Shown here piece after piece: positions 6,912 to 58,370 of a DNA stretch of 64,000 nucleotides. A program made the position numbers and the translations under genes. The first letter of the stretch is position 1. Every line of letters starts with the position of its first letter. Source of the stretch: Sipunculus nudus (lineage: Eukaryota > Annelida > Sipuncula > Golfingiida > Sipunculidae); contig CM049317.1 in NCBI GenBank assembly GCA_026874595.1, forward strand, positions 38,588,401 through 38,652,400. Reading direction: 5' to 3'. The notes under the pieces were generated by a model. The model searched no databases. It was not told where the DNA came from and worked only from the letters and a program-made list of their open reading frames with translations.

Positions 6912-7310
6912 TTTAGCTCAGCTCACCATAAGTTATCTAAGCTATAGTGTTGGTTCTCTGTCTGTCTGGCCATCTGTTAACAGGGTACATTTTGAAACCA
7001 CTTGACTTATGGATCCAAAATTTGACATATAGTTAGAAGTCCCAAAGTTAATTTTCCTGTCAAACTCAAAACTGGGTCACTGTGAATGCATTCCTTTGAG
7101 GAAGTAAGGAAAAAACTTTTCCATCGAAAACCTATTGTTACATTCTAGGACTGCCTGTTGGCTGTTTTTGTGCAAATTCAGCAAAAATATTCCTTGATAT
7201 ATTTTCTTTGTACATGTCAGAAATTAGGTCAATATTGCATAATCTGTACAAGTTGGGGCCTGAAAATAATGTTTATTGTCAAAATATCAAGAAAGATATT
7301 TACGCTTTTT
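6912..7310 (+). mobile_element. Family A element fragment
   Basis: It begins TTTTTAGCTCAGCTCACCATA and follows the family A body through the 'cagaaattaggtcaatatt' module. It then breaks off at a C-tract (about 7315-7326), where another repeat with a CCGTCTGTCCGTCAGG motif starts; that second repeat recurs around 9240-9640. Confidence 0.55.
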
Positions 7311-9981
7311 TTGGCCCCCCCCCCCCTTCGGCAGAAAGGAGGTCATTAATTTGAGTTGTTTGATCTGTCCGTCTGTCCGTCAGGTTATCTTCTCCATGTG
7401 ATAATTTTCTTGATATTAACCTTTTTATTCAAATTTTGGTCAGCGATTGCTCTCATGCATACCTTGGTTGGGTTTTGGAATATCTCTCTGAAAAATTATT
7501 ATCACCAGCTCCAAAACAAAATTTTCCTCTTTCCCAATTCACAAAAAAAATGATGACATGTGGAGACATCTTCCGGGGACAATGAAAACTAACACAGAGG
7601 CACTATGACATGTGGAGACATCTCCAGGGGAAAATAAAAACTGAAGCATATTGAGAAAGCAAAAGGGGAAAACGAGGTGTAAGCAGAGGACATAAATTCC
7701 ACGAAAAAATGGTAAATGGGGAAGCTAGAGAGCCTTTTTCAGTGTAATATGTAACTGTATTTAATTGAGATTTATTTTGATACCAGGAATTAGGTCAAAA
7801 CTTTGGGGTTTTTTTTAAGTTATCAGCATAAATTTAAAATCATTACCTTAAATTTGCCCAACTTTGACAATGGTACATTTTTTCCTGTACACACTGTTGA
7901 CTTATTTTCACATCATGCCAACATAATGATTATGTTATAATCTTTTATCATCTGAAATTTGAAAGCATTTGATAAAAAAAACATGTCACTGTCAGGCAAT
8001 CCTGAGATTATGTAGCTGCCCCCTCAACCTCCTGAGTGCCTGTGCTGGCCTGAGGTCTGACTGATTTGTCATGGGGTGGTCTGAGCCAGAGACAACTTCC
8101 ATGTGACCCCAGTACAGGTTAACTGTTACATAATTCAGCTGGTGGGATGGCCACTTAAGCGAAATCTCAAGGTAATACATCATGACACAGTGTGTGTTAG
8201 TAAGATGGAACCTGTTTCACATTTCAGTTACAATCACACATGAAATTATATAATCTCTAGGCCAAAAAAAATTAAAGGTATGGTTCTCAGGCACCGCCAG
8301 CATCAATTTTAACCCCCTGCATCATAAATTTTTATTTTGGTTTTCCACAGAAACTTACCAATTTTGAGCTGCAGCCACTTGCATATTTCTTCCAAGTAGA
8401 TAGAATCATACAATTTCCTTTGTTATGTAGTGCTTTAGCTTGTTTAGCAAAATAAATCTGTTATTATCATGCTTTTCCATTATCATTTGACATTTTTTAT
8501 CAAAACATACTAAAAAAATAAAAATAAAAAAACGCCCACCCACATTGATTTCTGAATAAAAGTCCCTGAGAACCATTCTCTTTTTATTTTGGCCTTAATC
8601 CTCTCATGTTTATTAGACTTTTGGACTAAGGAACTGACTGACTGGCTTGGTCCACTGCGAAGGGAGAGAGTGCAGGGTTATGACTTTTTGAGCTCCCCCC
8701 CCCCCCTTGCACACATACACACATAACAAAAACAATCATTTGTCTTCATATGTTAAGGTTTATGTTTTGCTTCTATCCAAAAATCTCATCAGATATGTTC
8801 TCTACAAATGAGTTTAAAACAGACACTGTTACAGTTATTTTTCAATCAAGAATGGTTTCTGTATTGAATTAAAGACATAATTTTTTTAATATGGAATACC
8901 ACAAAAATGCAGTACAAAATTGTAAAGCCTAATTACAGTCCCTGTGGTAATTCATAATTAATGGTAAACACCCAAAAATAGTTCAGGATTTCATAAATTG
9001 GATAATGTTAATAAAACATGCTAAGGATCATGTCCTAGTTTTCCTTATTGCATGATTAAATGGATTCATGCCTCAATTTCATTTGAGCAATGTTTACTTT
9101 ATTTAACATACTTATCAAATTTGGTTTATTCTAATTTGAAAATGGAAAATTTTAAATTTATTTTACACCCTCTTATTTAAGTTAATAAATTAAATATGTA
9201 TTATTATCTCCACTTTCTTCTTTTTTTTTTGCCATGCTCCGCGGATGCTGGGGACATTAATTTGGGTTTGTCTGGCTCTCTGTCTCTCTGTCAGTCCGTC
9301 AGGTTTTTTTGTTTCTGTGCAATAACTTTCCTAAATATTATCCAATTTCATTCAAATTTGGGTCAGTGATTGCTCTCATGAATACCTTGGTTGGGATTGG
9401 TTTTGGAGTGTCTGGCTTCTGTCTGTCTGTCTGTCACTCTGTCTGTCTCTCCATCTGGTGTTTATTTCCAGGCGATAATTTACCTAAATATCATCTGATT
9501 TCATTCAAATGTTGGTTAGTGATTGCTCTCATGGTCAACTTGTTTGGGATCGGTTTTGGAGTGTCTGGCATTCTGTCTGTCTGTCTGTCTGTCACTCTTG
9601 TCTGTCCGTGCATTATCAAGCATGTAAAACAACAAGAGCCCAAAGCAGGGGACATTTATTCCACAAATTTGGTTGTTAATATTTACATGCATATTACAGT
9701 CACTTAGTTTAGATACCAGTACTACTACAAATGTGTTATCATGAGAGGCTCCTGCATGTTTGATATAGCCAGTAAAAGTACACAGGCAAGTCCAAATATG
9801 AGTATTGTGTTCATTTCTCAAATAATGATATAAAAAATGAACTGTTGCTGTATTTCAATATGTTAGATTTTAATAAAAAATAATCTCATAATCAGTTTCA
9901 GCTGTGCACCCTGACCCACAGGTCCATTGTTAATGAAATTTATTAGGCTTGGAGTAAGTTAACTGTTTCTCTCTCACGCAG
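7311..9981. other. Non-coding DNA before the first recognised TATDN1 exon
   Basis: No exon is recognised here. About 7325-7740 and 9215-9660 are copies of one repeat with GTCTGTCTGTC tracts; the latter has two internal tandem modules of about 170 bp, each with 'cctaaatatyatc'. A homopolymer C run lies at 8695-8706. The exon that should precede 9982, carrying the GE(C/F)GLD motif of TatD proteins, was looked for and not found. Confidence 0.4.
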
Positions 9982-10024
9982 ATTATGACAGACTTCACTT
10001 CTGTCCAAAAGATATCCAACTCAA
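9982..10024 (+). CDS. TATDN1: TATDN1 exon (YDRLHFCPKDIQL), internal
   Basis: The acceptor is a pyrimidine-rich run ending ACGCAG (9976-9981) and the donor is GTAAGT (10025-10030). The exon is 43 bp: two bases finishing an Asp codon, 13 codons reading YDRLHFCPKDIQL, and two bases (AA) of a Lys codon completed by the G at 16695. In TATDN1 this segment directly follows the GE(C/F)GLD metal-ligand loop and leads into the helix before the LHCRN motif. The preceding exon must end in phase 1; it is not visible in the 9.9 kb to the left. The exon is too short for ordinary ORF scanning and was found by motif. Confidence 0.88.
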
Positions 10025-15069: not shown

Positions 15070-16694
15070 CCAGGTACTTTGAGCGTCAGTTTGAGGTAGA
15101 TAATGACCGAGTACAACTCTTGTCCTTTTTCAGGTACTTTGAGCAACAGTTCGAGGTAGCTAATGCCCCAGTACAACTCTTGTTCTTTTTCAGGTACTTT
15201 GAGCATCAGTTTTAGGTAGCTAATGCCTCAGTACAACTCTTGTTCTTTTCAGGTACTTTGAGCATCAGTTTTAGGTAGCTAATGACCCAACACAACTCTC
15301 ATTCTTTATTAGGTACTTTGAGCATCAGTTTTAGGTAGCTATTGCCTCAGTACAACTCTCATTCTTTATTAGGTACTTTGAGCATCAGTTTAAGGTAGCT
15401 AATGCCTCAGTACAAATCTTGTTCCTTTTCAGGTACTTTGAGCATCAGTTTCAGGTAGCTAATGCCTCAGTACAACTCTTGTTTTTTTTCAGGTACTTTG
15501 AGCATCGGTTTTAGGTAGCTAATGACCCAGTACAACTCTCATTCTTTAATAGGTACTTTGAGCATCAATTTTATGTATCTAATGCCTCAGTACAACTCTT
15601 GTTCTTTTTAGGTACTTTGAGCATCAGTTTTCAGTAGCTAATGCCTCAGTACAACTCTTGTTCTTTTTCAGGTACTTTGAGCATCAGTTTGAGGTAGCTA
15701 ATGCCTTAGTACAACTCTTGTTCTTTTTCAGGTACTTTGAGCATCAGTTTTCAGTAGCTAATGCCTCAGTACAACTCTCATTCTTTATTAGGTACTTTGA
15801 GCATCAGTGTTAGGTAGCTAATGCCTCAATACAACTCTTGTTCCTTTTCAGGTACTTTGAGCATCAGTTTCAGGTAGCTAATGCCTCAGTACAACTCTTG
15901 TTCTTTTTCAGGTACTTTGTGCATCAGTTTTAGGTAGCTAATGACCCAGTACAACTCTCATTCTTTAATAGGTACTTTGAGCTTCAGTTTTCAGTAGTAA
16001 ATGCCTCAGTACAACTCTTGTTCTTTTTCAGGTACTTTGAGCATCAGTTTTCAGTAGCTAATGCCTCAGTACAACTCTTGTTCTTTTTCAGGTACTTTGA
16101 GCTTCAGTTTTCAGTAGTTAATGCCTCAGTACAACTCTTGTTCTTTTTCAGGTACTTTGAGCTTCAGTTTTCAGTAGTTAATGCCTAAGTACAACTCTTG
16201 TTCTTTTTCAGGTACTTTGAGCTTCAGTTTTCAGTAGCTAATGCCTTAGTACAACTCTTGTTCTTTTTCAGGTACTTTGAGCTTCAGTTTTCAGTAGTTA
16301 ATGCCTCAGTACAACTCTTGTTCTTTTTCAGGTACTTTGAGCTTCAGTTTTCAGTAGCTAATGCCTCAGTACAACTCTTGTTCTTTTTCAGGTACTTTGA
16401 GCTTCAGTTTTCAGTAGTTTTTGCCTCAGTACAACTCTTGTTCTTTTTCAGGAATTTTGAGCATCAGTTTTCAGTAGCTAATGCCTCAGTACAACTCTTG
16501 TTCTTTTTCAGGTACTTTGAGCATCAGTTTGAGGTAGATAATGACCCGGCAGTACAACTCTTGTTCTTTTTCAGGTACTTTGAGCTTCAGTTTTCAGTAG
16601 TTAATGCCTCAGTACAACTCTAGTTCTTTTTCAGGTATTAAGAGCGTCAGTTTTAGGTAGATAATGACCCAGTACAACTCTTGTTCTTTTTCAG
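15070..16694 (+). repeat. 60-bp minisatellite made of the TATDN1 3' splice site, about 27 units
   Basis: Each unit carries the intron end and first bases of the next exon: a T-rich tract, CAG, then GTACTTTGAGC.TCAGTTT and about 20 further bases ending 'cagtacaactc'. The last unit is continuous with the real exon at 16695, whose start is the same sequence. Units are mostly exactly 60 bp, so the reading frame of TATDN1 runs through them unchanged. Many left units contain an in-frame TAG, while 16186-16620 is open. The units nearest the exon carry stops at 16621-16623 and 16639-16641. The first unit and the last ones have GAGCGTCAG or GTTTGAGG as in the exon, while central units have GAGCATCAG or GAGCTTCAG. 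Confidence 0.95.
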
Positions 16695-16821
16695 GTACTT
16701 TGAGCGTCAGTTTGAGATAGCTAAATCCACTGGACTACCCATGTTCTTGCACTGTCGGAATGCAGCAGAAGATTTTGCAGACTTGGTCCGAAAACATTTT
16801 GATGACTTTAGCAGTGGAGTG
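16695..16821 (+). CDS. TATDN1: TATDN1 exon with LHCRN metal-ligand motif
   Basis: The 127-bp exon begins with one base completing Lys, then 42 codons starting YFERQFEIA, through PMFLHCRN, and ending DDFSSGV. The His of LHCRN (codon 16750-16752) corresponds to a conserved metal ligand of TatD enzymes. The donor is GTAAGT at 16822. Its acceptor is the last of about 28 nearly identical sites in tandem. The exact acceptor is fixed by the match to the family and by in-frame stops just upstream, which would truncate the protein if the next-nearest site were used. Confidence 0.93.
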
Positions 16822-17345
16822 GTAAGTGGTGGTAATTGTATTTTTCCCTTGTCTCCATGGCCTGCAGATGTCACTATATACCCAAAGATTATGAAGTTAA
16901 TTGTATGATGATAAATGTTATATTGTTTTTAAGCTTTTAGGTTTCAGGTTATATTTATGGTTGTTGATGGGTATTTGTGTATACTAACCTGAATTATGTG
17001 GTCCACCTTTTGTTCTTGTTTATTGGGTCTTGTCCTTATGTAGTAGTTCACAAAAAAACACATGGTATAATATGAATTCTGTGTGAGGTTTAAAAGCTTT
17101 ATTTATTATAAAAATTATACATTGCCTATTATATTATTTATCTTTAACCCCTGATATCTACCCTCAGTCTGTAAACTGGATTGTTAATTGGATCACAGGA
17201 GCTTGATTAATTGCAGGATGTGATTTTATACTTAATACATGACAGACTTTAACCTGCACTGTAATTCTACAAACATGGAGGTGACAACTTTAAGACTTAC
17301 AATAGTAGATCATTTGATTCACTGTGGTCTTACTGTTTGTTTTAG

Positions 17346-17422
17346 GTTCACTCCTTCGATGGCAGTAGAGAGGATGTCTCCACTTTTGTAGATCTAGGAT
17401 TATACATTGGCATCAATGGCTG
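17346..17422 (+). CDS. TATDN1: TATDN1 exon with VHSFDG motif
   Basis: The acceptor is 'ttgttttag' ending at 17345 and the donor GTGAGG starts at 17423. The 77-bp exon reads VHSFDGSREDV...LYIGING, with TG left over to start a Cys codon. The His of VHSFDG (17349-17351) is a conserved metal ligand, and the LYIGING(C) strand is typical of the family. The intron before it is only 524 bp and is the one complete intron here without obvious transposon sequence. Confidence 0.92.
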
Positions 17423-18457
17423 GTGAGGAAATGCACATCTCTCACTTGTTCAAGGATAACTCTTCTGTATGGTCCTGAAGCTTAATGCAGTGCAACATGT
17501 GCAATTTAAGTTTATCCTCAGCCACTTTCATGGTTCCAATAACATCCTATTCATAAAATTATTTCTTGATAAACGTACATCAAAATAATCATCGTACTGG
17601 AGAAATGATTACAACATGTGCCATTTCAATGGGAATAATTTTAAATATCTTCAAAACGGGAGGAGCTAGCATCACTAAATTTTTTGCAAAAAATTAAGTC
17701 ATCTAAAAACACGCCGATTGACTTTATTTTTTTGCTATCTGAAGCGAACTTGTGAGCATATGGGATGGCTCCTGCCACTGTCTGTACATGGCCCAAAGCC
17801 AGTCTCACAAAACGTAGGAGCTAGCACTGTCAAATTTTATGGATGAATCAGTCACCTGTCAAATGTAATCAGATTGAGCTTATTTTGGCGTCATCTGCAT
17901 TGATATGTATTTTACATTAAAAAAAGGTTAAAAAGCTTTTTATAAATCTTCTTCTCCAAATCTGTCCAGCCAAATCGTTCAGTATTTCACAGAATAATCC
18001 CAGTATAATCTCTCTCAAGTTTGTTTGAATAGTTCCAGTTTGGTAATATTTGGCCAAGTTACAGGAATCTGAACTTAGTCATTTGGTCAAAAAGCATTCT
18101 AAAATTACTATTTCAGAAAATGCTGGCACTATCATCACCAAATTCTGCGAGCTGTGAAATAACATGTTCTTAGTGCCCTTTAAGTCAGATGGACACATCA
18201 GCTGGATGTTGAACTTTCTAGCCAGGGAGTTCCTGGTAAAACCTTCCTGGCAACCTTTACATAAGTCGCTTTGGACTATGGGCAAAAAGCATGATTTTTA
18301 GCACCCCGGAAGTCATTCTACCCATTCTTCATGGTTCCTTCACAAATATTTTTCACCAGATCATAACCTCATTAATAATACATGAGTTACCTGTATGTCA
18401 AATTTAGCTAAGCTTCATGGCCCATTTGCCATTTGTTTAAAAGATACAGTGAGCAGT

Positions 18458-21070
18458 AATTTTTAGCTCAGCTGACTATAAGTCATCTGAGCTATAGTCG
18501 TGGTCCATTGTCCGTCGTCCGTCCGTCCGTCTGTCCGTCCGTCCGTCCGTCCGTAGATGTGGCACGTTTTGAAACCGTAAGACCTAGGAATCCAAAATTC
18601 GGCATAATGTTAGATGTCCCCAAGATCTCCTACCAAGCCGAAAACTGGGTCTTTGCAACTTCGTTCCTTTGAGAAATTAAGGAAAAACCTCAATTTTTTA
18701 TTAAAAACCTATTTTCACACTTTAGGACTGCCTAATATCAAAACCACTCATCTGTTTTTCCTCATATTTACCATAAATATTCCTCTATATAGTTCCTATG
18801 TACATGCCAGAAATTATGTCTGTATTATTTAATTTAAAAAAGTTCTGGGCCCAAACATAATGCATTTTGAAAAAAATAAGGAAAGATATTTGATCACTTA
18901 ACACAAAAAATGTTAAAGCTGTGGACCTTTTTTCCAGTAATATAACTTTATTTAATCAAAATTAAATTGTATACCCAAAATTAGATGAAAATCTTTTAAA
19001 TTTTTTAAAATATTAATAAAAATAAAAAATTGGTACCTTAAATTTTGCCCAACTTTGAGCATGGCACGTTTTTTTCCTGTAAGTACTGTGGATTTAATTT
19101 TCACAGCATGTTTTTGTCAGCATTTCAACTGTTAACACCAAAAATTTGAACCCAGTTGATCAAAAACTGTAGATTTTAATCAAGTTTTCAAGCACCTTGT
19201 AACATATTGTTTACATCAAGCTAGTGTTATGCAGTTTGCAAAAGCTCAGCTCCCCAGCTTCAGCTCTAAGTTCCTTAAATTCAGCATACAGTTAGATGTC
19301 TCCAAAATCCCCTGCCATGCCAAGAATTTGGTCACTAGGACTTAATACCTTCAAGATATTAATGAAAAACTTCATTTTTCCATTAAAAACCCATTGTTAC
19401 ACTTCAAGACTGCCTAATATCAAAACCACTGATCTGACTTTAATCATAAACAATATACATATTTTTCATTCTCTATGCACATCCCAGAATGATGTCAGTA
19501 TTGCGTAATTGTTTTAAGTTATGGGCCCAAACATAATGCACTTGGTAAAAAATCAAGAAATATATTTACTCCCTTAACAAGGGCATTGCTAGAGATTTTT
19601 TGTCAGGGATGTAACATTATTTAATCAAGATTCAATTGAATACCCAAAATTAGTTCTGAATTTTTCAAATTTTATAAGTTATTAGTATAAATATAAAATT
19701 AGTACCTTAAATTTTGCCCAACTGTGACCATGGCATGTTTGTTTCCCGTGAGCACTGTTGATATAATTTTCATATCATGCACACATAAGGATTTCAGCTT
19801 TTTAGTTTAGAAAGCTGAAAGAAAGGCCAAAAATTGTAGCTTTTATTAATGTTTTTTATGAGACCCTGTCAGACTTTGGCTCTCTCCAGCCCCTCTTGAG
19901 TCACCTGTATGTTGACCTTGTTGACCTTTCATCAAATTATGCACGCTTGAGGCGAGAATCCAGGCAGCTTATGGCCAGCCACAGTTGATCCAGGTGTCCA
20001 ACCCAACTCATCTAGTAGTTTTAACCAACAACATAACAATAAACAACAAATTAATAAAATTTTATTGGTTTTTAATAACAAATTAAAGAAAAATAGAAAA
20101 GGAATTTGTTAGTTTATAATAACAGGAAATTAACTTGCAGTTACTGATGATATAAGAATCTTGTATCGATGGGTAGAATGTCACATATTCCAAATAACAC
20201 CATGCAGTCACCTATGGCATTTTTCAGTTCAATTTTAATGATAAAGAAGTAAATCATATTATTCATTACTAATCATTAGGGATCATATGAAGGAAATTAA
20301 TGATAGACAAAGATGCAGTTGATAATATTAATCTAGATTCCTACTGTGTCTAGTGTGTACATTGATGTGAAATTAGTCCAAAATGAATTTTTTACAGTTA
20401 TTTTTTAATATAAATAAAAGCCATAAAACCAGGTACTTATGATCATTATTTAAATGTGTGAATTTTGTATATTCTGGATTCTCAACATCATTGTTTGGTG
20501 AAAATTGAATAAATACCAGACATGGTGCAAATACTTTGTAATTGTATTTAAATACGAATATGATTATGTACTCCATTATAAAATTTCTTGCATAAAGAAT
20601 GGGAATACAGGTAAAAATGAAAGTATATGAATACTCGTGCAAATACTTTCAAAATGTATTCATGAATGCATTCATGAATATATTCTTTAATATTATTTTA
20701 ATAATCATATCAGTTATATTTCATTTTAAAAAATCATATGATTCATTTATTATTTTTAATAAAAATTATATTGGGACAATATTTTTTTTAATAAATAGTT
20801 AAACTCTTATATTATATGTTCTGCTTATAAGTTATATGGCCAAGTCAAAATCTGTGTGACAATAGTACTCCAATTGTTAATAAAATAAAGGAAATCAATC
20901 CTCTTCCCTGTCTCCAAAGGTACTATCAAAATCATACATAAGCTAAACAACAACAACTCATAATACAGCTTATATATATTACCACACAAAACCAGCATGT
21001 GCCTCATTTCTAAATAATATTTTTTTATCATAAATAACAGCTGAGCGTCGTGACCCATAGGTCCCTTGTT
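18458..21070 (+). mobile_element. Family A element, full length (2.6 kb)
   Basis: It starts at the TTTTAGCTCAGCTGA hairpin, carries a (GTCC)n tract at 18515-18553, and ends CAGCTGAGCGTCGTGACCC then ATAGGTCCCTTGTT at 21039-21070. The body has two related modules (about 18560-19080 and 19260-19740) and an AT-rich 3' third. Near-identical copies are at 43471-46108 (direct) and 60663-63281 (inverted). An internally deleted one is at 30268-31968. Short frames in it are repeated among copies but carry different disruptions and show no protein similarity I recognise. Confidence 0.85.
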
Positions 21071-21093
21071 TGTGAAGTGTATTCTGAATATAA

Positions 21094-22258
21094 TTGTATC
21101 CGCCATAACAGTTTTGCGGATACTATGTTTTCAGTGGAACGCCGCCGCCGCTTAGGTTTCCAGATAACTCTTCCGTAACCACTGGGCAGAATTTTTTTTA
21201 AATTAGGAATTATGATTGGGTCACATGTGACCTGCTGCGCCCTCATTTTTGGTTGACCTCTAACCTTTCCTCTCTGCCCAGCCTCCATTTGTGCATCTGT
21301 TTCCACACATAAACCCACAGGAACCCTTGACCGATCAAGCTAAAAATTTGCACAAATGTAGCCCTTTGATAGCTTTATAACATACACTAAAAATGGTGGT
21401 GCCACCTGCAACCATTTTTGCACAGTGTCCATCTGTTCATCTGCCTTGGGATAAAATCACTCATATCTCTGCATGGTTTGGACTTATTCACCTGGAATTT
21501 TGCATGTGGATACATCCTGGACAGCTTTCTTGATTTTATGACAGGTGGCGCCACCTACATTCACCTTTACGCTGCAGACATCCAAGCACATATCTCGTGG
21601 ACCGTTTGACCGATTGGGCCAAAATTTTGCATGTGTATAGATCTCACATAGCTCTTTGTCAAACACAAAACTGGTGGGGCCTTCTGCAACCATTTTTGCA
21701 CAGTGTCCGTCTGTTTGTATGCAGTGGGATAAAATCACTTGTATCTTGGCAGTGGTTTGACATATCTGCCTAAAATTTTGCATGTTAATACATCTTGGAT
21801 AGCTTTCTCGATTTTATGGCAGGTGGCACCACCTACATTTATGTTTAAGCTGCAGACATTCAGGCTTATATCTCAGGACTGGTTTGACACACCCTCCTAA
21901 AATTTTGCATATATATAGATCTCACATAGCTCTTAATCATACACAAAATTGGTGGCGCCACCTGCCACCATTTTGCACAGCGTCCTTCTGTTTTTTCTGC
22001 TGTGGGATAAAATCACTCGTATACAAGTAGTGGTTTGACTTATCTGCCTATAATTTTGCATATGTTTACAACTTGGACAGCTTTCTAGATTTTGTGGTAG
22101 TTGGCGCAACCTACCTACACATTTCAGCTGCAGACATCCATGCTAATATGCAACACACCTCACTCTATTTCCCCTAGCCACTCAATCATTGCCTCACTTC
22201 ACCCGTCCCACTCTGATTTTGGTGGATACACGTCGCTTGTCCACTACCCATATTCTAG
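21094..22258 (+). mobile_element. Family F Helitron-like element
   Basis: The 5' end has an inverted-repeat hairpin, GTATCCGC (21096-21103) with GCGGATAC (21116-21123). The 3' end is 'cactacccatattCTAG' (CTAG 22255-22258) next to TTTT. The interior consists of modules of about 140-300 bp with 'cacctgaaattttgcatgtg' and the palindrome GGTGGCGCCACC. Full-length relatives are at 34752-35924 (+) and 48933-50105 (-), and a 3' piece is at 28520-28996. The CTAG-T end suggests rolling-circle transposition. No enzyme is encoded. Confidence 0.6.
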
Positions 22259-22317
22259 TTTATAAATTGCAACACTGAAGCCTTCTAAGTTTTCACAAAT
22301 TGAAATTTTTTTTGTAG

Positions 22318-22388
22318 CTCTCTGAAAACAGCTGAAAATCTGGAAGTCCTGAAGTGCATACCCAGTGATAGACTTCTTATTGAGACAG
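22318..22388 (+). CDS. TATDN1: TATDN1 exon ending at the catalytic Asp codon (LLIET|D)
   Basis: The acceptor is TTTTTTTTGTAG (ends 22317) and the donor GTAATT starts at 22389. The 71-bp exon finishes the Cys codon, then reads 23 codons SLKTAENLEVLKC...LLIET, and its last base (22388) opens the Asp codon completed at 26154-26155. That Asp (ETDAPW) is the conserved metal ligand and catalytic residue. If the donor is skipped, the frame meets TAA at 22424-22426, in the first downstream repeat unit. Confidence 0.92.
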
Positions 22389-23092
22389 GTAATTCAGACT
22401 TGCATATCTCAGTGATAGACATCTAACTGAGATAGGTAATACAGACTTACATATCTCAGTGATAGACATCTCACTGAGACAGGTAATACAGACTTACATA
22501 TCTCAGTGATAGACATCTAACTGAGACAGGTAATACAGACTTACATATCTCAGTGATAGACATCTAACTGAGACAGGTAATACAGACTAACATATCTCAG
22601 TGATAGACTTCTAACTGAGACAAGTAATACAGACTTACATATCTCAGTGATAGACTTCTTACTGAGACAGGTAATACAGAGATAGACATCTTACTGAGAC
22701 AGGTAATACAGACTAACATATCTCAGAGATAGACATCTTACTGAGACAGGTAATACAGACTAACATATCTCAGTGATAGACATCTTACTTAGACAGGTAA
22801 TACAGACTTACATATCTAAGTGATAGACTTCTAACTGAGACAGGTAATACAGACTTACATATCTCAGTGATAGACTTCTAACTGAGACAGGTAATACAGA
22901 CTTACATATCTCAGTGATAGACATCTCACTGAGACAGGTAATACAGACTTACATATCTCAGTGATAGACATCTCACTGAGACAGGTAATACAGACTTACA
23001 TATCTCAGTGATAGACATCTTACTGAGATAGGTAATACAGACTTACATATCTCAGTGATAGACTTCTAACTGAGACAGGTAATATAGACTAT
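22389..23092 (+). repeat. 47-bp minisatellite made of the TATDN1 5' splice site, about 15 units
   Basis: Each unit reads roughly 'catatctcagtgatagac', a variable 'atctaactgagacag', then GTAATACAGACTTA. The exon's last 28 bases and its donor have the same order (cagtgatagacttcttattgagacag, then GTAATTCAGACTTG), so the unit is a copy of the exon end plus intron start. Every unit therefore carries GAGACAG|GTAATA, a donor-like site as good as the real one. One unit near 22677 is shortened. Units are 47 bp, so the frame shifts from unit to unit. Confidence 0.95.
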
Positions 23093-23527
23093 CTCAGGTA
23101 TATGAGTGTTTGTAGGGGTGCTGTGATCGATTTGTAACCTATGTTACAGCCAATACCTGGGTCTATGCCAGAGAAGCCCCTAGCAAACCCTCTGATTTTC
23201 AAATGCTTCAATTAAGATGTATTTTCACTGAGATCCCCTTACCATGTGATTAGTTTGGCCAATCAATTTTTCTGCGTACCTTTTGTGTCAGTTGATTTTT
23301 ACTGGCAAACCAGCAGCCATGCCACCCTCCTGGTTCTGTCATTCTTATGACCATATAAACATTGAATGTTAAACAGATTTACACATAAAACCACATGTAA
23401 ATATATTGTGGTACTTTTGATAAATTTGTAGTTTTACCTTAAAATTACAAACTGCTGCCCACAGACCAGTTATTATATTCTGAAAATTAATATTAGTCTA
23501 TACTCTCTAGTGTATGAAAACTTAAGA

Positions 23528-23976
23528 TTTTTAGCTCAGCTTTAGCTTTCAGTCATCCTCAGCTATAGCGATGGGTCATTGCCCATCGTCCTTCCGTCTG
23601 GCAATCCGGACGTTCGCAGGGCACAATTTATAACCGTAAGGGATAGGATCATAAACCCTGTGCAGTCTTAGAGGTATATGAAATATCTCCTTGGAAACCT
23701 GAAATTAGGTCTCTGTTACCATTATCCTCTGAGCTATGGGGCTGAGAAGTACCCCCCAGAATAATTAAATTTTGATACAAAACCTCAAGTTTCTGAAGAA
23801 CTCATGCATTCACCACAGGGCACAAATTGATACCATTGCACATAGAATCTTCCTACTTGACATATGCTTCAGTTGAATTGGGATACCACCTACAAAATTT
23901 GGCATTCAGATGATAAAATTCCTTTTGTGAATGTCTTCCTACTCTGCTGAGCATAATAACATCTGGGTCACTTGTT
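23528..23976 (+). mobile_element. Family B element, short deletion derivative
   Basis: It starts TTTTTAGCTCAGC and ends GCTGAGCATAATAACATCTG then GGTCACTTGTT, the same ends as the 3-kb family B copies at 33053-36108 and 48749-51473. Only one internal module (with 'ggaaacctgaaattaggtctc' and 'accccccagaata') remains, giving a miniature element of about 450 bp. Confidence 0.65.
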
Positions 23977-25289
23977 TTATTTTGTGTTCATCAAATTTTC
24001 CATGTAGACTTACACAGCAATACATTTTACTGATCAGATGGATGGCTCCCAATGGTATCTTGTTCAGATTTTTTGCAATTTAGAAAACCTGAGCATAAAT
24101 GAATGCCTGCTGGATAGTTATAAAGTTTAATGATTGATTTCTTTATATTTTTAAAGAGTTTGATATCTGATAACTAAAGATAATCCCTTGAACTCTTTAT
24201 AAATTTAAGCCAGAAAACTCCCATCCCACCTCACTCCTGTTGTTTGCTTTGTTTTTATATCCATGTGTTTATAACATGTGGGGGTACAGTAAAAGCAATC
24301 CTAACACATTTAACAAGGACATCTGGTGTCAAGTCAGATGAAGCAGAGTTTTGCAAAGGTTGTTTTGCAGCTAGTGACTTTCAACTTCTGCATATATCCA
24401 ACAAACCATCTTAGGTTTCATGTTTTATTATTCCCTTGCAGCTTCGGAGGGGATAGAGTAAAGCCTCCATTTGTGGGTCCTTCCACCCATCTAAGCTAAG
24501 CCCTTTGACCAAAACATTTTATCCTTAACATATGGCTCACCCACCCAACTGTTAACAACAGATGAAGAACCCTATTGATTTTGAGGTCATGGGGTCATAG
24601 GTCAAGGACGGAGGACCTACTTCTTTGTAAAGCTTGTGGACCATTATAAGCCAAACCCGTTGACCAAAACCTATCATCTTTTACTTATGGCTCACCCAAC
24701 CACAGATGAAGACCCTATTAATTTTTTAGGTAAAAGGTCAAGGCCACAGGATCCAATTCTTGAAAAGGCTTATGGACCCATTATAAGCAAGACTGTTTGG
24801 CCAAAATCTTTCACATATGACTCACCCACTGACAGATGAAGACCCTTTTCGATTTTGAGGTCACTCAGACAAAGGTCAAGGTCACAGAACTGCCCTCCTG
24901 ATTTTCACACTGTGTAACACACCCTATGCTCCCGTGCGAGAGGATGTTCCACTTTGCAGTGCCCTTGGTCTGTTTGTCAAAATTCATACAAGCTCAGACA
25001 TCCATCACAAAGTGAAATAAAAACTTTTCTTAAAATGAATTGCCCACAGTTCATGAATATGTATGCAGATTACACCAGAAATCACAGAACTTCTACAGAA
25101 AAGGCAGGTGAATAGTAAAAAGTAAATCTATTTCAAAATGAGGACTGCAATAGTCTTCTTATGCAAAACTGTTGTTTCAACTTCTGTAATATTGCACAAA
25201 AATAATTATTAGGAGGCCTTTGTTCAGATTTACTTAAATGGCTGTCGGCAGAATTATTGTACCCATAACAAATGAAATGACTACATCTT

Positions 25290-26100
25290 TTATTAGCCTT
25301 TCTCACCTAAGCCTGGTCTGTTTTGCCTCACATTTTGCATCTTCAATGACTTTTTCGTACACAATTAAGACTGGTGTTGCCCCCTTACAGTAATTTTTGC
25401 ACAGTGTATGTACCAGCTTATTTCTCAGGAGGGATTTTATATATATCAGCCTGAAATTGTGCATATTTATACATATCAGATAGCTTTGTTGTAGACAAGA
25501 CTGGTGGCACCACCTACAATAATTTTTGCACAGTGTATGTCCCTGCTAAATTTTCAGGAGGGATTTGATATATTAGCCTGAAATTGGGCATATCATCTCA
25601 GATAGCATTGTTGTATGCTTGACAGGTGGCACCATCTACAGTGATTTTTGCAGTGAAGCTCCTGCATTTTCCTAAGGAGAGATTTGACATCTCATTATCA
25701 GCCTGAAATTATACATAGTGATATGTCTCTAATGGTTTGTTGCATACAAGACTTTTGGCACCACCTTCAATTGTTTCAAGCCTCTGTGCACATAGCCGAA
25801 TATTGGATTGAGGTATCTGCCTGAAATTTTGCATTTCATCCATGCATCTTTGATGGCTTTCTCTCACAAAAGACTGGTGATGCTACCTACAATAATTTTT
25901 TTGTTGTTTGCAACTATTGCCAGTATTTCAGCATTGACATTTGTGTAATTGGTGCATGTACCTGGGTTCAAAATGATCAGTTCTTGCATTGTACATATAC
26001 ATTTCACACATGTACATGAAAAGTAACGGTCCAGCATGGAAGCATTATACCTGATGTATATCCCATTGCACAGGTTTGCATTAGGCCTGTAGGCCTTGTT
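25290..26100 (+). mobile_element. Family N element with tandem GGTGGCACCACC modules
   Basis: Four diverged modules of about 120 bp repeat the order 'gcacagtgtatg', 'ctcaggagggattt', 'gcctgaaat', then a GGTGGCACCACC-like motif. The 3' end is a 'gcattatacctgatgtat...gcacaggt' segment closing with GGCCTGTAGGCCTTGTT at 26085-26100. An inverted relative is at 46203-46760, and more complete copies lie at 27850-29171 and, inverted, 46203-47540. Confidence 0.55.
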
Positions 26101-26153
26101 ATGAATTTTTATTTTTCAGATTTTTTCAGCTGTTTCTACACTGTGTTTTTCAG

Positions 26154-26286
26154 ATGCTCCTTGGTGTGAAATAAGGCCAACTCATGCAGGATCTAAGTTC
26201 ATTAAGACCACATTTCCCACAAAAAAGAAAGAGAAATGGGAGACTGGCATGTGTGTGAAAGGCAGGAATGAACCAGCATTGATCAG
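26154..26286 (+). CDS. TATDN1: TATDN1 exon starting with Asp-Ala-Pro-Trp
   Basis: The acceptor is 'gtgtttttcag' (ends 26153) and the donor is GTAGCT at 26287. The 133-bp exon finishes the Asp codon, then [18 protein letters not shown], a Lys-rich KKKEKWETG segment, and ends GRNEPALI plus AG of an Arg codon. The DAPWC..R..HAGSK pattern and the NEP motif are hallmarks of TATDN1-type proteins. There is no repeat array at either edge of this exon. Confidence 0.93.
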
Positions 26287-26451
26287 GTAGCTTGTGGTAT
26301 TGGTGAACATAAATGTTGCTTAAGCCTATTATTGTAATGTTCACAGCAGCACTACCTTTGCTTAAACATGAGTTTACCAAATCATGTAAACATCTTAAAA
26401 TTCTTCATATGTTTTAAATCTTTGCAGATCTGCAGGAACTTCAGGAAATAT

Positions 26452-27840
26452 TTTTAGCGAACCTGTGAGCTTATGCGATGGTGCGGCGTCGTGCGTGGTA
26501 CGTCGTGCGTCATCTGTACATTAACCATAGCTATCTCGAAAATGGCAGGAGCTAGCATCACCAATTTTTTTTGCAAATAATCAGTTATTCCAAAAACTAT
26601 ATCGGATTTTGTTTATTTTTTTTCTAACTGCATTTTCTTAGATTTTATAGGGAAAAAGCTAAAAAAGCTTTAAAAATCTTCTTCTCCGAAACTGCCCAGC
26701 CATATTGTCTAATATTGTACAGAAATGATCCCTGGAACAATCTTTCTCAAGTTTGTTTGAATGGTTCCAGTTCGGAGATTTTTGGCCAAGTTACAGGAGG
26801 TTGAACTTTGTTAACTGTGCAAAAAAGCATATTAAAATTTATATCTCAAAAACTGCTGTAGCTATCATCACCAAATTTTATGCCAATGTTGGTCACATAG
26901 GTCATATCTGAAATTGAGGTATTGGTGGCGCCACCTGCATTGGCCTTTTTTGTACAGGGTCATCGGTGCCTGTATCACACTGAGAGCTACAAAAAACTTC
27001 CTCTCTGAAACCCATTGGCCAAAAGTGTTTAATATTGCACAGAAATGATCATAGGGTAGTGCTTTCTGAAGTTTGTTTAAATGGTCTCTTTTCATTGACT
27101 TTTGGCTAAGTTATGGGAAGCTAAATTTAGTCATATGCCATAACAGCCCATTTTAGCTCAGTGGATACAAAGATCTTCTCAAAAACCACTGGGCCAAATT
27201 CTTAAATCTCACAAATTAATTATCCTCAGATATTGATAATTCAACTTTGTTCAAATGGTTTTGGTTCAGTGCTTTTTGGCTGATTTATGGGAAGCTGAAC
27301 TTAGCCAATTTGCTGTATCTTCCTATACGAGTTATAAACCTGCGAAACGTTTTTCAACTGATGCCACTGAAGCCAGTTTGTTAAATATTTTACAAGAATA
27401 ATCCCTACAATAATTCTTATAATAATTGTCATAAATGGTTCCACATGAATGATTTTTGGCTGAATTATGGAGATTGAATTGAGTCATTTTACCATACATG
27501 TTAGCAGCTGTGTGATGCTGTTACATCAAGCCTAGCACCAGTTTATCTATTACATCATGCCACTAGGCATTTAGATTTCAGGTTATCTTTGGTTAATATT
27601 GACAAGAAAGTTTTTTTAAAAGCTTTTAAAAAATTTAGATTTATGATTAAAGTTATTTATCATACCAGACAATGTTACAATCATGGGTATTCAGCTCTCT
27701 GTGGCTATATAAAGACAAATGTACGTGGATTATAAATTTTTGGTATCCCTACTCAACTTAATTCAAGAATTTGCCATCAATTAGATATATCTGTATTTTA
27801 ATTTTGCATTCAGTATGCATCCATAATAATTTTACATATA
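26452..27840 (+). mobile_element. Family C element
   Basis: It starts TTTTTAGCGAACCTGTGAGC with a degenerate CGTCGTGCGTGGTACG tract. The body is built of imperfect modules of about 230 bp, each with 'aatatt.cacagaaatgat' and 'tttgtt.gaatggttc.'. An inverted full-length relative is at 52338-53690, and the two also share their AT-rich 3' third ('ccatcaattagatatatctg'). At about 26545-26590 this copy preserves the empty target that is occupied by a family B element in the copy at 32856-36500. No coding frame. Confidence 0.65.
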
Positions 27841-27849
27841 TTCCTGATT

Positions 27850-29171
27850 TTTTTTATAAAAAGTCAGCTGAAAAGCATTTTGTATTGGGAAAATAAATTT
27901 CAAAGTTATTTCAAGTAGGGACCACTTTAATGTACAGATGGCAGCACTTGGTTTACCATTGGCAGATTGCCAGTGCCTTGATGTTGGCCATTAGCCAAGA
28001 TGTCAGCTCTATAAATAGTTTTGGCACAGTGCCAGGATTGGAAGAAGTGCAGCAAGGTATAGGTCAAGAGTTCAATCAGTGCAGTAGCTGCATTCTATTT
28101 ATAGCTTTGGCAGACTGCTTACAGCATCATATTTGGCACCAAAGTTCAGCCTGAATCTATTTATAGCTTTGGCAGACTGCCAGCTATGTCAGATTATGCA
28201 GCAGGTCAAGAGTTCACTCAGTGCAGCCAGGTGCAGGTCAAGAGTTCACTCAGTGCAGTAGCTTGAGGCAGCACTTTGTCACAGGTCACTCAGGGCAACT
28301 GCCTTACTCACCTGAGCCTTGTCAGCCCAGTGCATCAAACTGTGGGGAAGTTTGATGTATTGGACTGATATTTGACCTGCCTATGCATCTTTGATAGTAT
28401 TCTCATTTACAAGACAGGTGGTGCCAGCTACATTTACTTTTGCAGTGTGTGCGCCTGCTTATTTCTACAGAGGAATTTGATACGTCAGCCTAAAATTTGG
28501 CATGTTTATACATATCGGGTAGCCCTCTTTTTTGGTTGACCTCTGACCTTTCTTCTCTACCCAGCGTCCATTTGTGCGTCTGTTTCCACGCATAAACCCA
28601 CATATCTCGGCAACGGTTTGACCGATAAGGCTAAAGATTTTGCACAAATGTAGCCCTTGGAAAGCTTTATAACATACACTAAAGATGGTGGCAGCACCTG
28701 CAACCATTTTTGCACAGCGTGCCTCTGTTCATCTGCCTTGGGATAAAATCACTCATATCTCAGCAGTGGTTTGACTTATTCACCTGAAATTTTGCAGGTT
28801 CATACATCCTGGACAATTTTCTCGATTTTATGACAGGTGGCACCACCTGCATTTACGTTTACGCTGCAGACATCCATGCTAATATTCAACACACCTCACT
28901 CTATTCCCCTTGCCACTTAAACCATGCCTCACTTCACCCGTGCCACTCTGATTTCTGCGGATACACATAGTCGCTTGTCGACTACCCATATTCTAGTTTT
29001 AAAATGTCCAAGTCTGAAACTTGCAGGTCCTAAACGTCCATTTTGCTGAAATCATAATGACTAAGGTAGATATGCAGGACTTAAGAGGATCAATATTAAA
29101 TTTTAAAAATTAAAACCTTCATTCATACCCCTAAACTTTGCACAGGTTCGCATTAGGCCTGTAGGCCTTGT
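27850..29171 (+). mobile_element. Family N element with nested family F copy
   Basis: The left half shares 'agctgaaaagcattttg', 'ggcagcacttggtttacc' and 'aggtcaagagttcactcagtg' with 31969-32250 and, inverted, 46760-47540. The right half is the GGTGGTGCCAGC-type module and the GGCCTGTAGGCCTTGTT end. A family F fragment (28520-28996, CTAG at 28993-28996) interrupts it. Confidence 0.5.
28520..28996 (+). mobile_element. Family F element, 5'-truncated
   Basis: Matches the family F copies from 'ttggttgacctctgacc' through the GCTGCAGACATCCATGC segment to the 'cgactacccatattCTAG' end next to TTTT. It lacks the 5' hairpin. Confidence 0.55.
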
Positions 29172-29179
29172 TCTTTTTA

Positions 29180-29934
29180 CAGATGACGATATGTCATGAA
29201 TCTCCTGACAGGTGGACCATTCATGAACTGTCATGAATCTCCTGACAGGTGGACCATTCATGTACTGTCGTGAATCTCCTGACAGGTGGACCATTCATGT
29301 ACTGTAATGAATCTCCTGACAGGTGGACCATTCGTGTACTGTAATGAATCTCCTGACAATTGGACCATTTGTGTACTGTAATGAATCTCCTGACAGGTGG
29401 ACCATTCATGTACTGACATGAATCTCCTGACAGGTGGACCATTCATGTACTGAAGTGAATCTCCTGATGGTTGGACCATTCATGTACTGTCATGAATCTC
29501 CTGACAGGTGGACCATTCATGTACTGTCGTTAATCTCCTGACAGGTGGACCATTCATGTACTGTCATGAATCTCCTGACAGGTGGATCATTCATGTACTG
29601 TCGTGAATCTCCTGACAGGTGGACCATTCATGTACTGTCATGAATCTCCTGACAGGTGGATCATTCATGTACTGTCGTGAATCTCCTGATGGGTGGACCA
29701 TTCATGTACTGTCATGAATCTCCTGACAGGTGGACCATTCATGTACTGAAGTGAATCTCCTGATGGGTGGACCATTCATGTACTGTCATGAATCTCCTGA
29801 CAATTGGACCATTCATGTACTGTTATGAATCTCCTGACAGGTGGACCATTCATGTACTGTAATGAATCTCCTGACAGGTGGACCATTCATGTCCTGTTGT
29901 GAATCTTTTGACAGGTGGAACATTTGTGTACTTT
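29180..29934 (+). repeat. 37-bp minisatellite abutting the last TATDN1 acceptor, about 20 units
   Basis: The unit reads roughly 'tgtactgtcatgaatc', CTCCTGACAG, GTGGACCATTCA. The array runs to within a few bases of the real acceptor: the last unit ends 'gtgtac' and is followed by TTTCAG and the exon. Each unit contains CTGAC, which fits the metazoan branch-point consensus, then a CAG. Unlike the other two arrays it is not an obvious copy of the exon edge; only CAGGT and the GTAC before the acceptor are shared. Minus-strand frames through it come from the repeat. Confidence 0.93.
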
Positions 29935-29937
29935 CAG

Positions 29938-30037
29938 GCAGGTCCTGGAAGTGATGGCTGGAGCTAGAGGAGAAGACCCAATTGAGCTGGCTGAGTGCAT
30001 GTACAACAACACTCTAAAGCTATTCTTTAAACAATAA
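29938..30037 (+). CDS. TATDN1: TATDN1 terminal coding exon
   Basis: The acceptor TTTCAG ends at 29937. The 100-bp exon completes an Arg codon, then reads [32 protein letters not shown] and stop TAA (30035-30037). The pattern of acidic EDP and YNNT..FF is the conserved C-terminal helix of TATDN1. The final Phe-Phe-Lys-Gln is a little different from, but the same length class as, the vertebrate end. Confidence 0.94.
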
Positions 30038-46202: not shown

Positions 46203-47540
46203 AAGGCCTACAGACCTAATGTGAACCTGTGCATTTGGAAATACACCAGGTATAATGCTTCAATGCTGGACCATTACTTCTCATGTATATGAACAATGCA
46301 AGTACTAAACATTTTGAATAAGAAACAATTACACAAACATCACAGCTGAAATTCTGGCATGGGTGCACACAACACAAAAATGACTGTAGCTGGCACCACC
46401 AGTCTTGTATACAACAAAGCTATCACAGATATATACATAAGCCCAATTTCAGACTGATATATCAAACCCCTCCTGAAAATAAGTAGGGACACACACTGTG
46501 CAAAAATTTTTGTAAGTGGCACCATCAGTCTTGTATACAACAAAGCTATTCGATATGTATATATATGCTCAATTTCTGGCTGATATATCAAATTCCTCTT
46601 TAGAAATAAGCAGGCACATACACTGTGCAAAAATCACTGTAGGTGGCGACACCTGTCTTGTGAACAAAAAGCCATCAAAGACACATAGACAGGTCAAAAT
46701 ATCAGGCCAATACATCAAAATTACCTTGAGTCTGATGCATGGGGCTGACCAGGCTTAGGTGAGAAAGGCAGTTGCCCCGAGTGAACTGTGACAAATTTCC
46801 TGGCTCAGGCTACTGCACTGAGTGAACTCATGACCTGCACCTGGCTAGACTGAGTGAGCTCTTGACCTGTTGCATAATCTGACACAGTTGACAGTCTGCC
46901 AAAACTATAAATAGATCAAGGCTGAACTCTGGTGCCAAATCTGATGCAGTGGGCAGTCTGCTAACAGTATAAATAGAATGCAGCTACTGCATTGAGTAAA
47001 CTCCTGACCCATACCTGGCTTACTGAGTGAACTCTTGACCTGTTGCCTAATCTGATACAGTTGGCAGTCTGTCAAAGCTATAAATAGATCGTGACTGACC
47101 TCTAGCCTGTTGGCAAGTCTGAAATAGTAGCCACACCATTGCATAAGCTCATGCAGGGGCTTTGCCCTGAGGGGCATGACACCCATGAGGTGATCACATT
47201 GTGCCCATGAAGTGTTCACATGTTGCCCATGAGGTGATCACATGTCACCCATGAGGTGATCACATGGCTTGTGCTTGGCTGCACTGATTGAACTCTTGAC
47301 CTAAATCTGGCTGCACTGAATGAACTCTTGATCTGTTGCAAATCTGAAACAGTTGGCAGTTTCTCAACCTATTTAAAGATACAGACACAATCTTGGAGTG
47401 TTGGTGAATCTGTTTACACATACTGAAAGACTTTGGCTAAAATGCTTTTTTTTCAAGCTGACATATTCATAAACTTTTTATCAAAATATCTAGAATAATA
47501 AAAATATGCAGTTCTTTCATTGTTAAAGGTCCAATAATTC
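46203..47540 (-). mobile_element. Family N element, inverted
   Basis: The left edge 'aaggcctacagacctaatgtg' is the inverted family N 3' end. Three inverted modules with GGTGGC.CCACC-like motifs follow, then the 'ctgcactgagtgaactc' segment repeated several times. At 47160-47275 there is a local tandem of a 24-bp unit with CCCATGAGGTGATCACAT, four copies. Confidence 0.55.
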
Positions 47541-56804: not shown

Positions 56805-58370
56805 ATGCAATTATCAATGCCATGCATGGACACCTGTACCAGTCATGTCAATTATCAATGCCATGCATGGACACTGGTACCAGTCAAGTCAGTTATCAAT
56901 GCCATGCATGGATGTGGGTACCAGTCAAGTCAGTTATCAATGCCATGCATGGACACCAGTACCAGTCATGTCAATGATCAATGCCATGCATGGACACTGG
57001 TACCAGTCAAGTAAGTTATCAATGCCATGCATGGATACCAGTACCAGTCAAGTCAGTTATCAATGCCATGCATGGACACCGGTACCAGTCATGTCAATGA
57101 TCAATGCCATGCATGGACACCGGTACCAGTCAAGTAAATGATCAATGCCATGCATGGACACCGGTACCAGTCAAGTCAATTATCAATGCCATGTATGGAC
57201 ACCAGTACCAGTCATGTCGATTATCAATGTCATGTATGGACACCAGTACCAGTCATGTCGATTATCAATGCCATGCATGGACACTGGTACCAGTCAAGTC
57301 AATGATCAATGCCATGTATGGACACCAGTACCAGTCATGTGAATTATCAATGCCATGCATGGACACTGGTACCAGTCATGTCAGTTATCAATGCCATGCA
57401 TGGACACTGGTACCAGTCAAGTAAATGATCAATGCCATGCATGGACACCGGTACCAGTCAAGTCAATTATCAATGCCATGTATGGACACCAGTACCAGTC
57501 ATGTCAATTATCAATGCCATGCATGAACACCGGTACCAGTCAAGTAAATGATCAATGCCATGCATGGACACCGGTACCAGTCAAGTCAGTTATCAATGCC
57601 ATGCATGGACACGGGTACCAGTCAAGTCAGTTATCAATGCCATGCATGGACACAGGTACCAGTCAAGTCAATTATCAATGCCATGCATGGACACCGGTAC
57701 CAGTCAAGTAAATGATCAATGCCATGCATGGACACCAGTACCAGTCAAGTCAATTATCAATGCCATGCATGGAAACCGGTACCAGTAAAGTCAATTATCA
57801 ATGCCATGCATGATCACCGGTACCAGTCATGTAAATTATCAATCCCATGCATGGACACCAGTGCCAGTCAAGTCAATTATCAATGCCATGCATGGACACC
57901 GGTACCAGTCATGTCAATGATCAATGCCAGGCATGGACCCCGGTACCAGTCAAGGAAATGATCAATGCCATGCATGGACACTGGTATCAGTCATGTCAAT
58001 GATCAATGCTATGCATGGACACCGGTACCAGTCAAGTCAATTTTCAATGCCATGCATGGACACCGGTACCAGTCAAGTCAATTATCAATGCCATGCATGG
58101 ACACCGGTACCAGTCATGTCAAATTATCAATGCCATGCATGGACACCAGTACCAGTTATGACAATTATCAATGCCATGCATGGACACCGGTACCAGTCAT
58201 GTCAATTATTATTGCCATGCATGGACACCGGTACCAGTCATGTCAATGATCAATGCCATGCATGGACACCAGAACCAGTTATGACAATTATCAATGCCTT
58301 GTATGAACACCGGTACCATTCATGTCAATTATCAATGCCATGCATGGACACTGGTACCGGTCAAGTCAAT
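56805..58370. repeat. 41-bp minisatellite with two palindromes per unit, about 38 units
   Basis: The unit reads 'tatcaatg', CCATGCATGG, ACACCGGTACCAGT, 'caagtcaat'. CCATGCATGG is a perfect 10-bp palindrome. In units with ACTGGTACCAGT there is a second, 12-bp, perfect palindrome, while ACCGGTACC units keep GGTACC. Two slow variants alternate: AAGT or ATGT after AGTC, and TTATC or TGATC before the next unit. Units are 41 bp without stops, so long frames run through it in all three phases; they are not genes. It sits 180 bp inside the LIG4 intron, near the donor at 58550, but is not derived from the exon. Confidence 0.95.

What the first reader, a model, noticed from the sequence alone, without database searches (positions are those of the whole stretch)
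15070..30037. Three TATDN1 splice junctions each carry their own minisatellite
Of the ten splice sites of the five complete TATDN1 introns, three are joined to tandem arrays of different units: 60 bp at the acceptor of exon 16695, 47 bp at the donor of exon 22388, and 37 bp at the acceptor of exon 29938. The first two are clearly amplified exon-intron borders. Finding this once could be chance; three independent arrays at the splice edges of one gene, while the many transposons around them are placed without regard to exons, suggests a process that acts at splice junctions (for example RNA-templated or replication-slippage duplication) or selection on splicing. I know of no described system of this kind.
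Basis: partly seen in the sequence, partly recalled or inferred. Interest (0 to 1): 0.9.

Follow-up and report, generated by a model that had tools for sequence, protein, structure and literature searches.

The report
Mirage minisatellites at a gene's splice junctions
In this animal genome, short stretches covering the border between an exon and an intron have been copied many times in a row, in TATDN1 and in a number of other genes; such 'mirage' repeats were already known from amphioxus, so the kind is not new, but its spread through ordinary genes here is striking.

Summary
In TATDN1 a 60-bp array spans the acceptor of the exon at 16695 and a 47-bp array spans the donor of the exon ending 22388; both units contain the real exon-intron border. 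The third array (37 bp) only abuts the acceptor at 29938 and shows no exon homology. Upstream of the window the same gene has another spanning array (46 bp x 26, donor of exon 5).

It is not peculiar to TATDN1. I sampled 249 exon hits of chaperonin, myosin and kinesin genes (267 kb). By hand, 12 of 29 distinct arrays carry the junction, in 12 of 67 gene clusters. By an automatic rule, 10 of 31 array rows overlap an exon hit, against 3.8 expected from random placement (P about 0.002). A junction bias is supported.

'No described system' is wrong: tandem repeats of exon-intron borders are published in amphioxus as 'mirages' (PMC3087553, PMC3902484). My searches found no mirages reported outside cephalochordates. 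The likeliest origin is local tandem duplication across the border, then expansion, tolerated because splicing uses the outermost true site. Why borders are favoured is unresolved.

The parts
9982..10024 (+). TATDN1 exon 6 (exon numbers are mine; the first coding exon was not located)
   Evidence: acgcag|ATTATG..ACTCAA|gtaagt
15071..16724 (+). 60-bp array, 27.5 copies; units carry the acceptor TTTTTCAG|GTACTTTGAGC of exon 7
   Evidence: TRF; units; exon-side match 54 nt, 27 positions with score 8 or more; acceptor AG intact in 54 of 54 bases scored; genome search matches only this array
16695..16821 (+). TATDN1 exon 7
17346..17422 (+). TATDN1 exon 8
22318..22388 (+). TATDN1 exon 9
22363..23090 (+). 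47-bp array; units carry the donor GAGACAG|GTAAT of exon 9
   Evidence: TRF; exon-side match 26 nt, 15 positions with score 8 or more; genome search matches only this array
26154..26286 (+). TATDN1 exon 10; no TRF array at its edges
29192..29936 (+). 37-bp array, 20.1 copies, ending at the acceptor of exon 11; unit has CTGACAGGTGG but no exon 11 homology
   Evidence: TRF; best exon match score 5.0; a distant relative (68-69% identity) on C17
29938..30037 (+). TATDN1 exon 11 with the stop codon

Best explanation
These are mirage-type minisatellites. A short segment that crossed an exon-intron border was duplicated in tandem, probably between short direct repeats on either side of it, and the duplicate then grew by slippage or unequal exchange into an array on the intron side. 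The spliceosome keeps using the true outermost site (the last acceptor or the first donor), so the array stays inside the intron and the protein is unchanged. That tolerance lets such arrays build up in this genome. Shown: the arrays, their units, that the three searched ones match only their own place, and the intact reading frame. Inferred: the slippage origin, correct splicing, and near neutrality. The excess at borders over neighbouring intron is shown for the sample; its cause is not.
For: Units carry exon plus intron sequence in 3 TATDN1 arrays and, by hand, 12 sampled arrays in 12 gene clusters. In each of these 15 the exon-side match exceeds the best of 20 shuffles, narrowly in L006, L084 and L149. 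DNA searches with the 60-, 47- and 46-bp arrays match only their own locus (the tool skips very common words). The TATDN1 frame is intact when the outermost sites are used, and the array copy next to exon 7 (16635-16694) holds in-frame stops, so only the acceptor before 16695 fits the protein. Direct repeats near the unit length: TGTTCTT at 16682 (intron) and 16742 (exon 7), 60 bp apart; TGCATA at 22355 and 22401, 46 bp apart for a 47-bp unit (read). In amphioxus such structures are reported not to disturb splicing (PMC3087553, PMC3902484, passages).
Against: Plain neutrality predicts no excess at borders over neighbouring intron, yet there is one. Array 3 and, by eye, sampled arrays close to exons such as L093, L137 and L138 (16-60 bp from the exon hit) show no exon homology, so border crossing is not the whole story. 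In TATDN1 a 51-bp array (about 110 bp before exon 4) and a 32-bp array (about 85 bp before exon 3) are not spanning either. No RNA evidence was available.
Confidence: 0.7

Rival explanations
1. A process acts at exon-intron borders: transcription- or splicing-coupled breakage or template switching duplicates DNA there more often than elsewhere.
For: Automatic count: 10 of 31 array rows overlap an exon hit against 3.8 expected. At 5 or more copies it is 6 of 16 against 2.2 (P 0.01), and under 2.5 copies 3 of 15 against 1.3 (P 0.12, not significant), a similar fold. Both acceptors (8) and donors (4) are hit by hand count.
Against: Arrays just outside exons also occur: 5 of 31 rows lie 1-60 bp from an exon hit, two of which (L139, L149) I count by hand as spanning. 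A general excess of old, transposon-free DNA near exons would give both. No fixed distance from the splice site was seen: exon-side matches run from 8 to 54 nt.
Confidence: 0.2
2. Selection keeps spare splice sites: extra copies of a donor or acceptor strengthen exon recognition in transposon-rich introns.
For: Splice dinucleotides are intact in 295 of 308 bases of array copies, 13 changes against about 23 expected from the rest of the units by a hand calculation.
Against: Per-array test not significant (P 0.16, n 16; wider motif P 0.09), and I chose arrays whose consensus shows the site. Extra sites inside the intron would give frameshifts or stops in many cases if used.
Confidence: 0.08
3. 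Intron birth: tandem duplication of an AGGT-containing exon segment makes a new intron (Rogers model), and the arrays are its remains.
For: CAGGT is present in the TRF units of the three arrays; a related case in potato is in print (PMC4974935, abstract).
Against: The TATDN1 introns with arrays are kilobases long and their two ends are not alike by inspection (junctions listed): exon 6 ends ACTCAA|gtaagt while the array at the other end repeats CAG|GTACTTTGAGC.
Confidence: 0.05
4. Chance plus the reader's eye: arrays lie anywhere and TATDN1 was picked because it looked odd.
For: Other minisatellites in the window (47175-47266, 56808-58370) are not at TATDN1 exons, and TATDN1 was not a random pick.
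Against: The independent sample shows the excess; 3 spanning arrays on 19 predicted TATDN1 splice sites compare with 12 on 498 sampled exon-hit edges (hand count).
Confidence: 0.05

Closest known systems
Mirage minisatellites of amphioxus (Adh3, globins BflGb6 and BflGb9, troponin C, PGBD5)
   Same: Tandem repeats that span an exon-intron boundary, at 5' or 3' boundaries, with AG/GT signals in many copies, in several genes of one genome (PMC3087553, PMC3902484, passages).
   Different: A different animal; arrays of up to about 27 copies in TATDN1; found here in 12 of 67 sampled gene clusters by one search, against gene-by-gene reports.
Human IFI6 (6-16) minisatellite with multiple splice donor sites
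   Same: Minisatellite that provides donor sites.
   Different: There downstream repeat units are used as donors in mRNA (PMC4526556, passages; the original paper, Turri 1995, was not held). Use here is untested, and at exon 7 the nearest extra copy would bring stops.
Internal tandem repeats at exon-intron boundaries of human segmental-duplication genes
   Same: Minisatellites at boundaries that can change the intron.
   Different: 27 intron modifications in recently duplicated human genes (PMC2812944, passages); here conserved genes such as TATDN1, chaperonins, myosins and kinesins.
Intron gain by tandem duplication across an intron-exon boundary (potato RdRp)
   Same: Duplicated segment crosses the boundary and carries splice signals.
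   Different: One duplication that made a new intron (PMC4974935, abstract); here many copies at one end of long introns.

Membership tests
Mirage minisatellites | Repeat unit spans an exon-intron boundary | tested here: met
   3 TATDN1 arrays and 12 sampled arrays with exon-side match above all 20 shuffles. For array 3 at 29192-29936: not met.
Mirage minisatellites | Minisatellite-like tandem array | tested here: met
   TRF periods 30-82 bp in the 15 spanning arrays; the period-34 array L149 can also be read as 17 bp.
Mirage minisatellites | Many copies keep AG/GT splice signals | tested here: met
   295 of 308 dinucleotide bases intact over 16 arrays (the 15 plus L102); only 2 of 4 in the short array L003.
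Mirage minisatellites | Both 5' and 3' exon boundaries affected, in several genes | tested here: met
   8 acceptors and 4 donors in 12 gene clusters by hand, plus 1 acceptor and 2 donors in TATDN1.
Mirage minisatellites | Regular splicing is not disturbed | not testable with these tools
   No transcript data; only the intact joined frame of TATDN1.
Mirage minisatellites | Copy number varies between alleles and in somatic tissue | not testable with these tools
   One assembly, no reads.
AGGT tandem-duplication intron gain | Donor and acceptor of the intron come from copies of the same segment | tested here: not met
   By inspection, the two ends of the TATDN1 introns that carry arrays differ (junction list). 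Not examined for the sampled genes.
IFI6-type minisatellite | Array copies used as alternative donors in mRNA | not testable with these tools
   No transcript data.

The most novel reading that the evidence does not exclude
In this lineage a mutational process tied to transcription or splicing repeatedly duplicates and expands DNA exactly at exon-intron borders, so that a few percent of the splice sites of conserved genes sit at the edge of an array of their own copies, independently of the amphioxus mirages.
Probability: 0.2. Interest if true: 0.85.

Novelty: new member of a known kind. Interest (0 to 1): 0.52.

Why it matters
In the papers seen, mirages are an amphioxus observation with an unclear mechanism. 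A second genome in which about 2.4% of sampled exon-hit edges (12 of 498 by hand count) carry one makes the question testable: is the border favoured by mutation, by selection, or only tolerated? It also bears on intron gain, since border-spanning arrays are ready-made stocks of spare splice sites, and on gene prediction, where many good decoy splice sites stand beside the real one.

Tried and rejected
Splice-site conservation in array copies as a sign of selection: not significant. Frame bias of unit lengths: 6 of 15 periods are multiples of three by hand; no clear bias. Copy number as a function of distance to the exon: dropped, because arrays far from the exon are cut by the ends of the fetched regions. 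L015 (49-bp array with SINKSLMALS-like exon sequence) looks like the start of an upstream exon, but the frame is unclear, so it is not counted as spanning, although my notebook lists it with a question mark and gives 13 of 30. The 51-bp array upstream of exon 4 (up 7065-7755) looked exon-derived at first; the real exon 4 is at up 7867-7930, about 110 bp away, so it is not spanning, and my notebook entry that calls it exon-derived is wrong. Array 3 as an amplified border: rejected. L102 (2.4 copies, 7-nt exon match), L080 and L115 (about 2 copies) fall under the 2.5-copy cut and are not counted among the 12. The copy and period criterion was written down after batch 1 had been seen and before TRF was run on batches 2 and 3. 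The hand count merges two row pairs that I take as one array each (L079; the 48-bp rows of L137 and L138), hence 29 and not 31. In one search the exons are named by an older numbering (ex4, ex6, ex8 = exons 5, 7, 9 here). The earthworm metallothionein paper PMC12783039 (passages) describes minisatellites inside an intron; the passages seen report none across a border.

Full report
What is there. The window is C12:38588401-38652400 of a 1.43-Gb assembly. The gene is TATDN1. Short exon translations match human TATDN1, and ten exons placed by homology and splice signals join into an open frame of 291 aa, of which residues 1-289 align with human TATDN1 (8efg_A, E 1.8e-125). Four of these exons lie in the 18 kb upstream that I fetched, six in the window: 9982-10024, 16695-16821, 17346-17422, 22318-22388, 26154-26286 and 29938-30037. 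The first coding exon was not found.

The arrays. TRF gives 60 bp x 27.5 at 15071-16724, 47 bp at 22363-23090, and 37 bp x 20.1 at 29192-29936. The first repeats the acceptor of exon 7 (TTTTTCAG|GTACTTTGAGC). Its exon side matches the true exon over 54 nt with score 26.5, while 20 shuffles reach at most 8.0. The second repeats the donor of exon 9 (GAGACAG|GTAAT), with a 26-nt exon match, score 23.5 against 9. The third ends at the acceptor of exon 11 but has no homology to it (score 5.0). A fourth array, outside the window from L001 8405 (46 bp x 26.1, 97% match), repeats the donor of exon 5 (GTGGTTTAG|GTATGT), with a 39-nt exon match. In that array most of the downstream copies printed read GTAGGTGAGT, an extra donor-like site, where the true exon reads GTAGGCGAGT. 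So TATDN1 has three spanning arrays on 19 predicted splice sites, and one that abuts. Two further minisatellites of the gene are not spanning: a 51-bp array ending about 110 bp before exon 4, and a 32-bp array of 2.9 copies ending about 85 bp before exon 3. Genome searches with the 60-, 47- and 46-bp arrays match only their own places; the 37-bp array has a weak relative on C17 at 68-69% identity.

Is it chance? I listed exon hits of the Cpn60_TCP1, myosin-head and kinesin families in the same genome (63, 75 and 126 matches). These are best-scoring hits: the tool scored 85 of 85, 65 of 198 and 122 of 225 candidates. I left out 15 of the 264: eleven Cpn60 hits on small contigs of bacterial type, three on two retrocopy-like genes, and one kinesin hit that ran through 15 stops. 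I fetched the remaining 249 with 500 bp on each side: 179 regions, 267,369 bases, 67 gene clusters. TRF arrays of period 20-100 and 2.5 copies or more make 31 rows. Ten overlap an exon hit. Random placement within the same region, allowed to enter an exon hit by at most one period, gives 3.8 (P 0.0014; repeat 0.0020). For 5 copies or more it is 6 of 16 against 2.2 (P 0.01); for fewer than 2.5 copies, 3 of 15 against 1.3 (P 0.12). By hand, 12 of 29 distinct arrays carry the junction inside the unit: L003, L006, L078, L084, L096, L097, L100, L103, L133, L139, L149 and L155, in 12 different gene clusters, 8 acceptors and 4 donors. All 12 exceed every shuffle on the exon side, although L006, L084 and L149 do so narrowly (9.5 against 8.0, 11 against 9.5, 8 against 6), and in L003 the copies have lost half of the splice dinucleotide bases (2 of 4). 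The hand judgement was made with the sequences in view, so the automatic count is the safer figure. The sample covers three gene families only.

What it most likely is. A tandem duplication crossed the border and then expanded on the intron side. At exon 7 the heptamer TGTTCTT lies at 16682 in the intron and at 16742 in the exon, 60 bp apart, which is the unit; at exon 9, TGCATA lies at 22355 and 22401, 46 bp apart for a 47-bp unit (read). Short direct repeats of this sort are recalled, not looked up here, as common seeds of minisatellites. With the outermost true sites the protein is intact; the array copy next to exon 7 (16635-16694) holds stops in frame, so it could not serve. Whether the RNA really ignores the copies is not testable here. 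Splice dinucleotides in the copies are kept in 295 of 308 bases, but this does not differ significantly from the rest of the units (P 0.16; wider motif P 0.09), so I do not claim selection.

Why borders? The excess is 2.6-fold by the automatic count. Arrays also lie just outside exons: 5 of 31 rows at 1-60 bp, 7 at 61-200 and 9 beyond, two of the five (L139, L149) being spanning by hand. Introns whose interior is mostly young transposon sequence, leaving only the exon-near DNA old enough to grow arrays, would give such a gradient; this is inference. A border-directed mutational process is not excluded, and I give it 0.2.

What is known. Tandem repeats that span exon-intron boundaries are published in amphioxus as 'mirages': Adh3 and the globin genes BflGb6 and BflGb9 (PMC3087553, passages), and troponin C, with similar repeats in PGBD5 (PMC3902484, passages). 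Those passages say that the mechanism is unclear, that splicing is apparently not disturbed, and that length and somatic instability occur. Human IFI6 uses repeat units as donors (PMC4526556, passages), and human segmental-duplication genes have tandem repeats at exon-intron boundaries (PMC2812944, passages). My ten literature searches found no report of mirages by that name outside cephalochordates; the library holds open-licence papers only, so this is weak evidence of absence. The finding is therefore a new member of a known kind, in a different animal, with a first rough rate (12 of 498 exon-hit edges by hand).

Noticed in passing
L001 8405 to L002 600 (C12:38578805-38580000): 46-bp x 26 array at the TATDN1 exon 5 donor; most copies printed hold a second donor-like GTAG|GTGAGT that the true exon lacks (GTAGGCGAG).
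   Followed up: partly
C9:48047479-48063382 (L137, L138, L139): A myosin gene with arrays beside all three of its sampled exons: one donor spanned by a 30-bp array (L139), the others with arrays 16-40 bp from the exon hit.
   Followed up: partly
56808-58370: 41-bp x 38 minisatellite; no gene was looked for beside it.
   Followed up: no
1405, 14956, 26079, 29151 (+) and 46200 (-): A repeated transposon-end-like motif CATTAGGCCTGTAGGCCTTGTT (up to 3 mismatches) lies shortly upstream of arrays 1 and 3 and of exon 10.
   Followed up: partly
G000 contigs C61, C62, C66, C72, C73, C75, C89, C99: Nine equal-scoring intronless 547-aa Cpn60 genes on eight small contigs look like bacterial contaminant or symbiont DNA in the assembly.
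   Followed up: no
C17:35333546-35333803: A stretch 68-69% identical to the 37-bp TATDN1 array, so array 3 may not be purely local.
   Followed up: no
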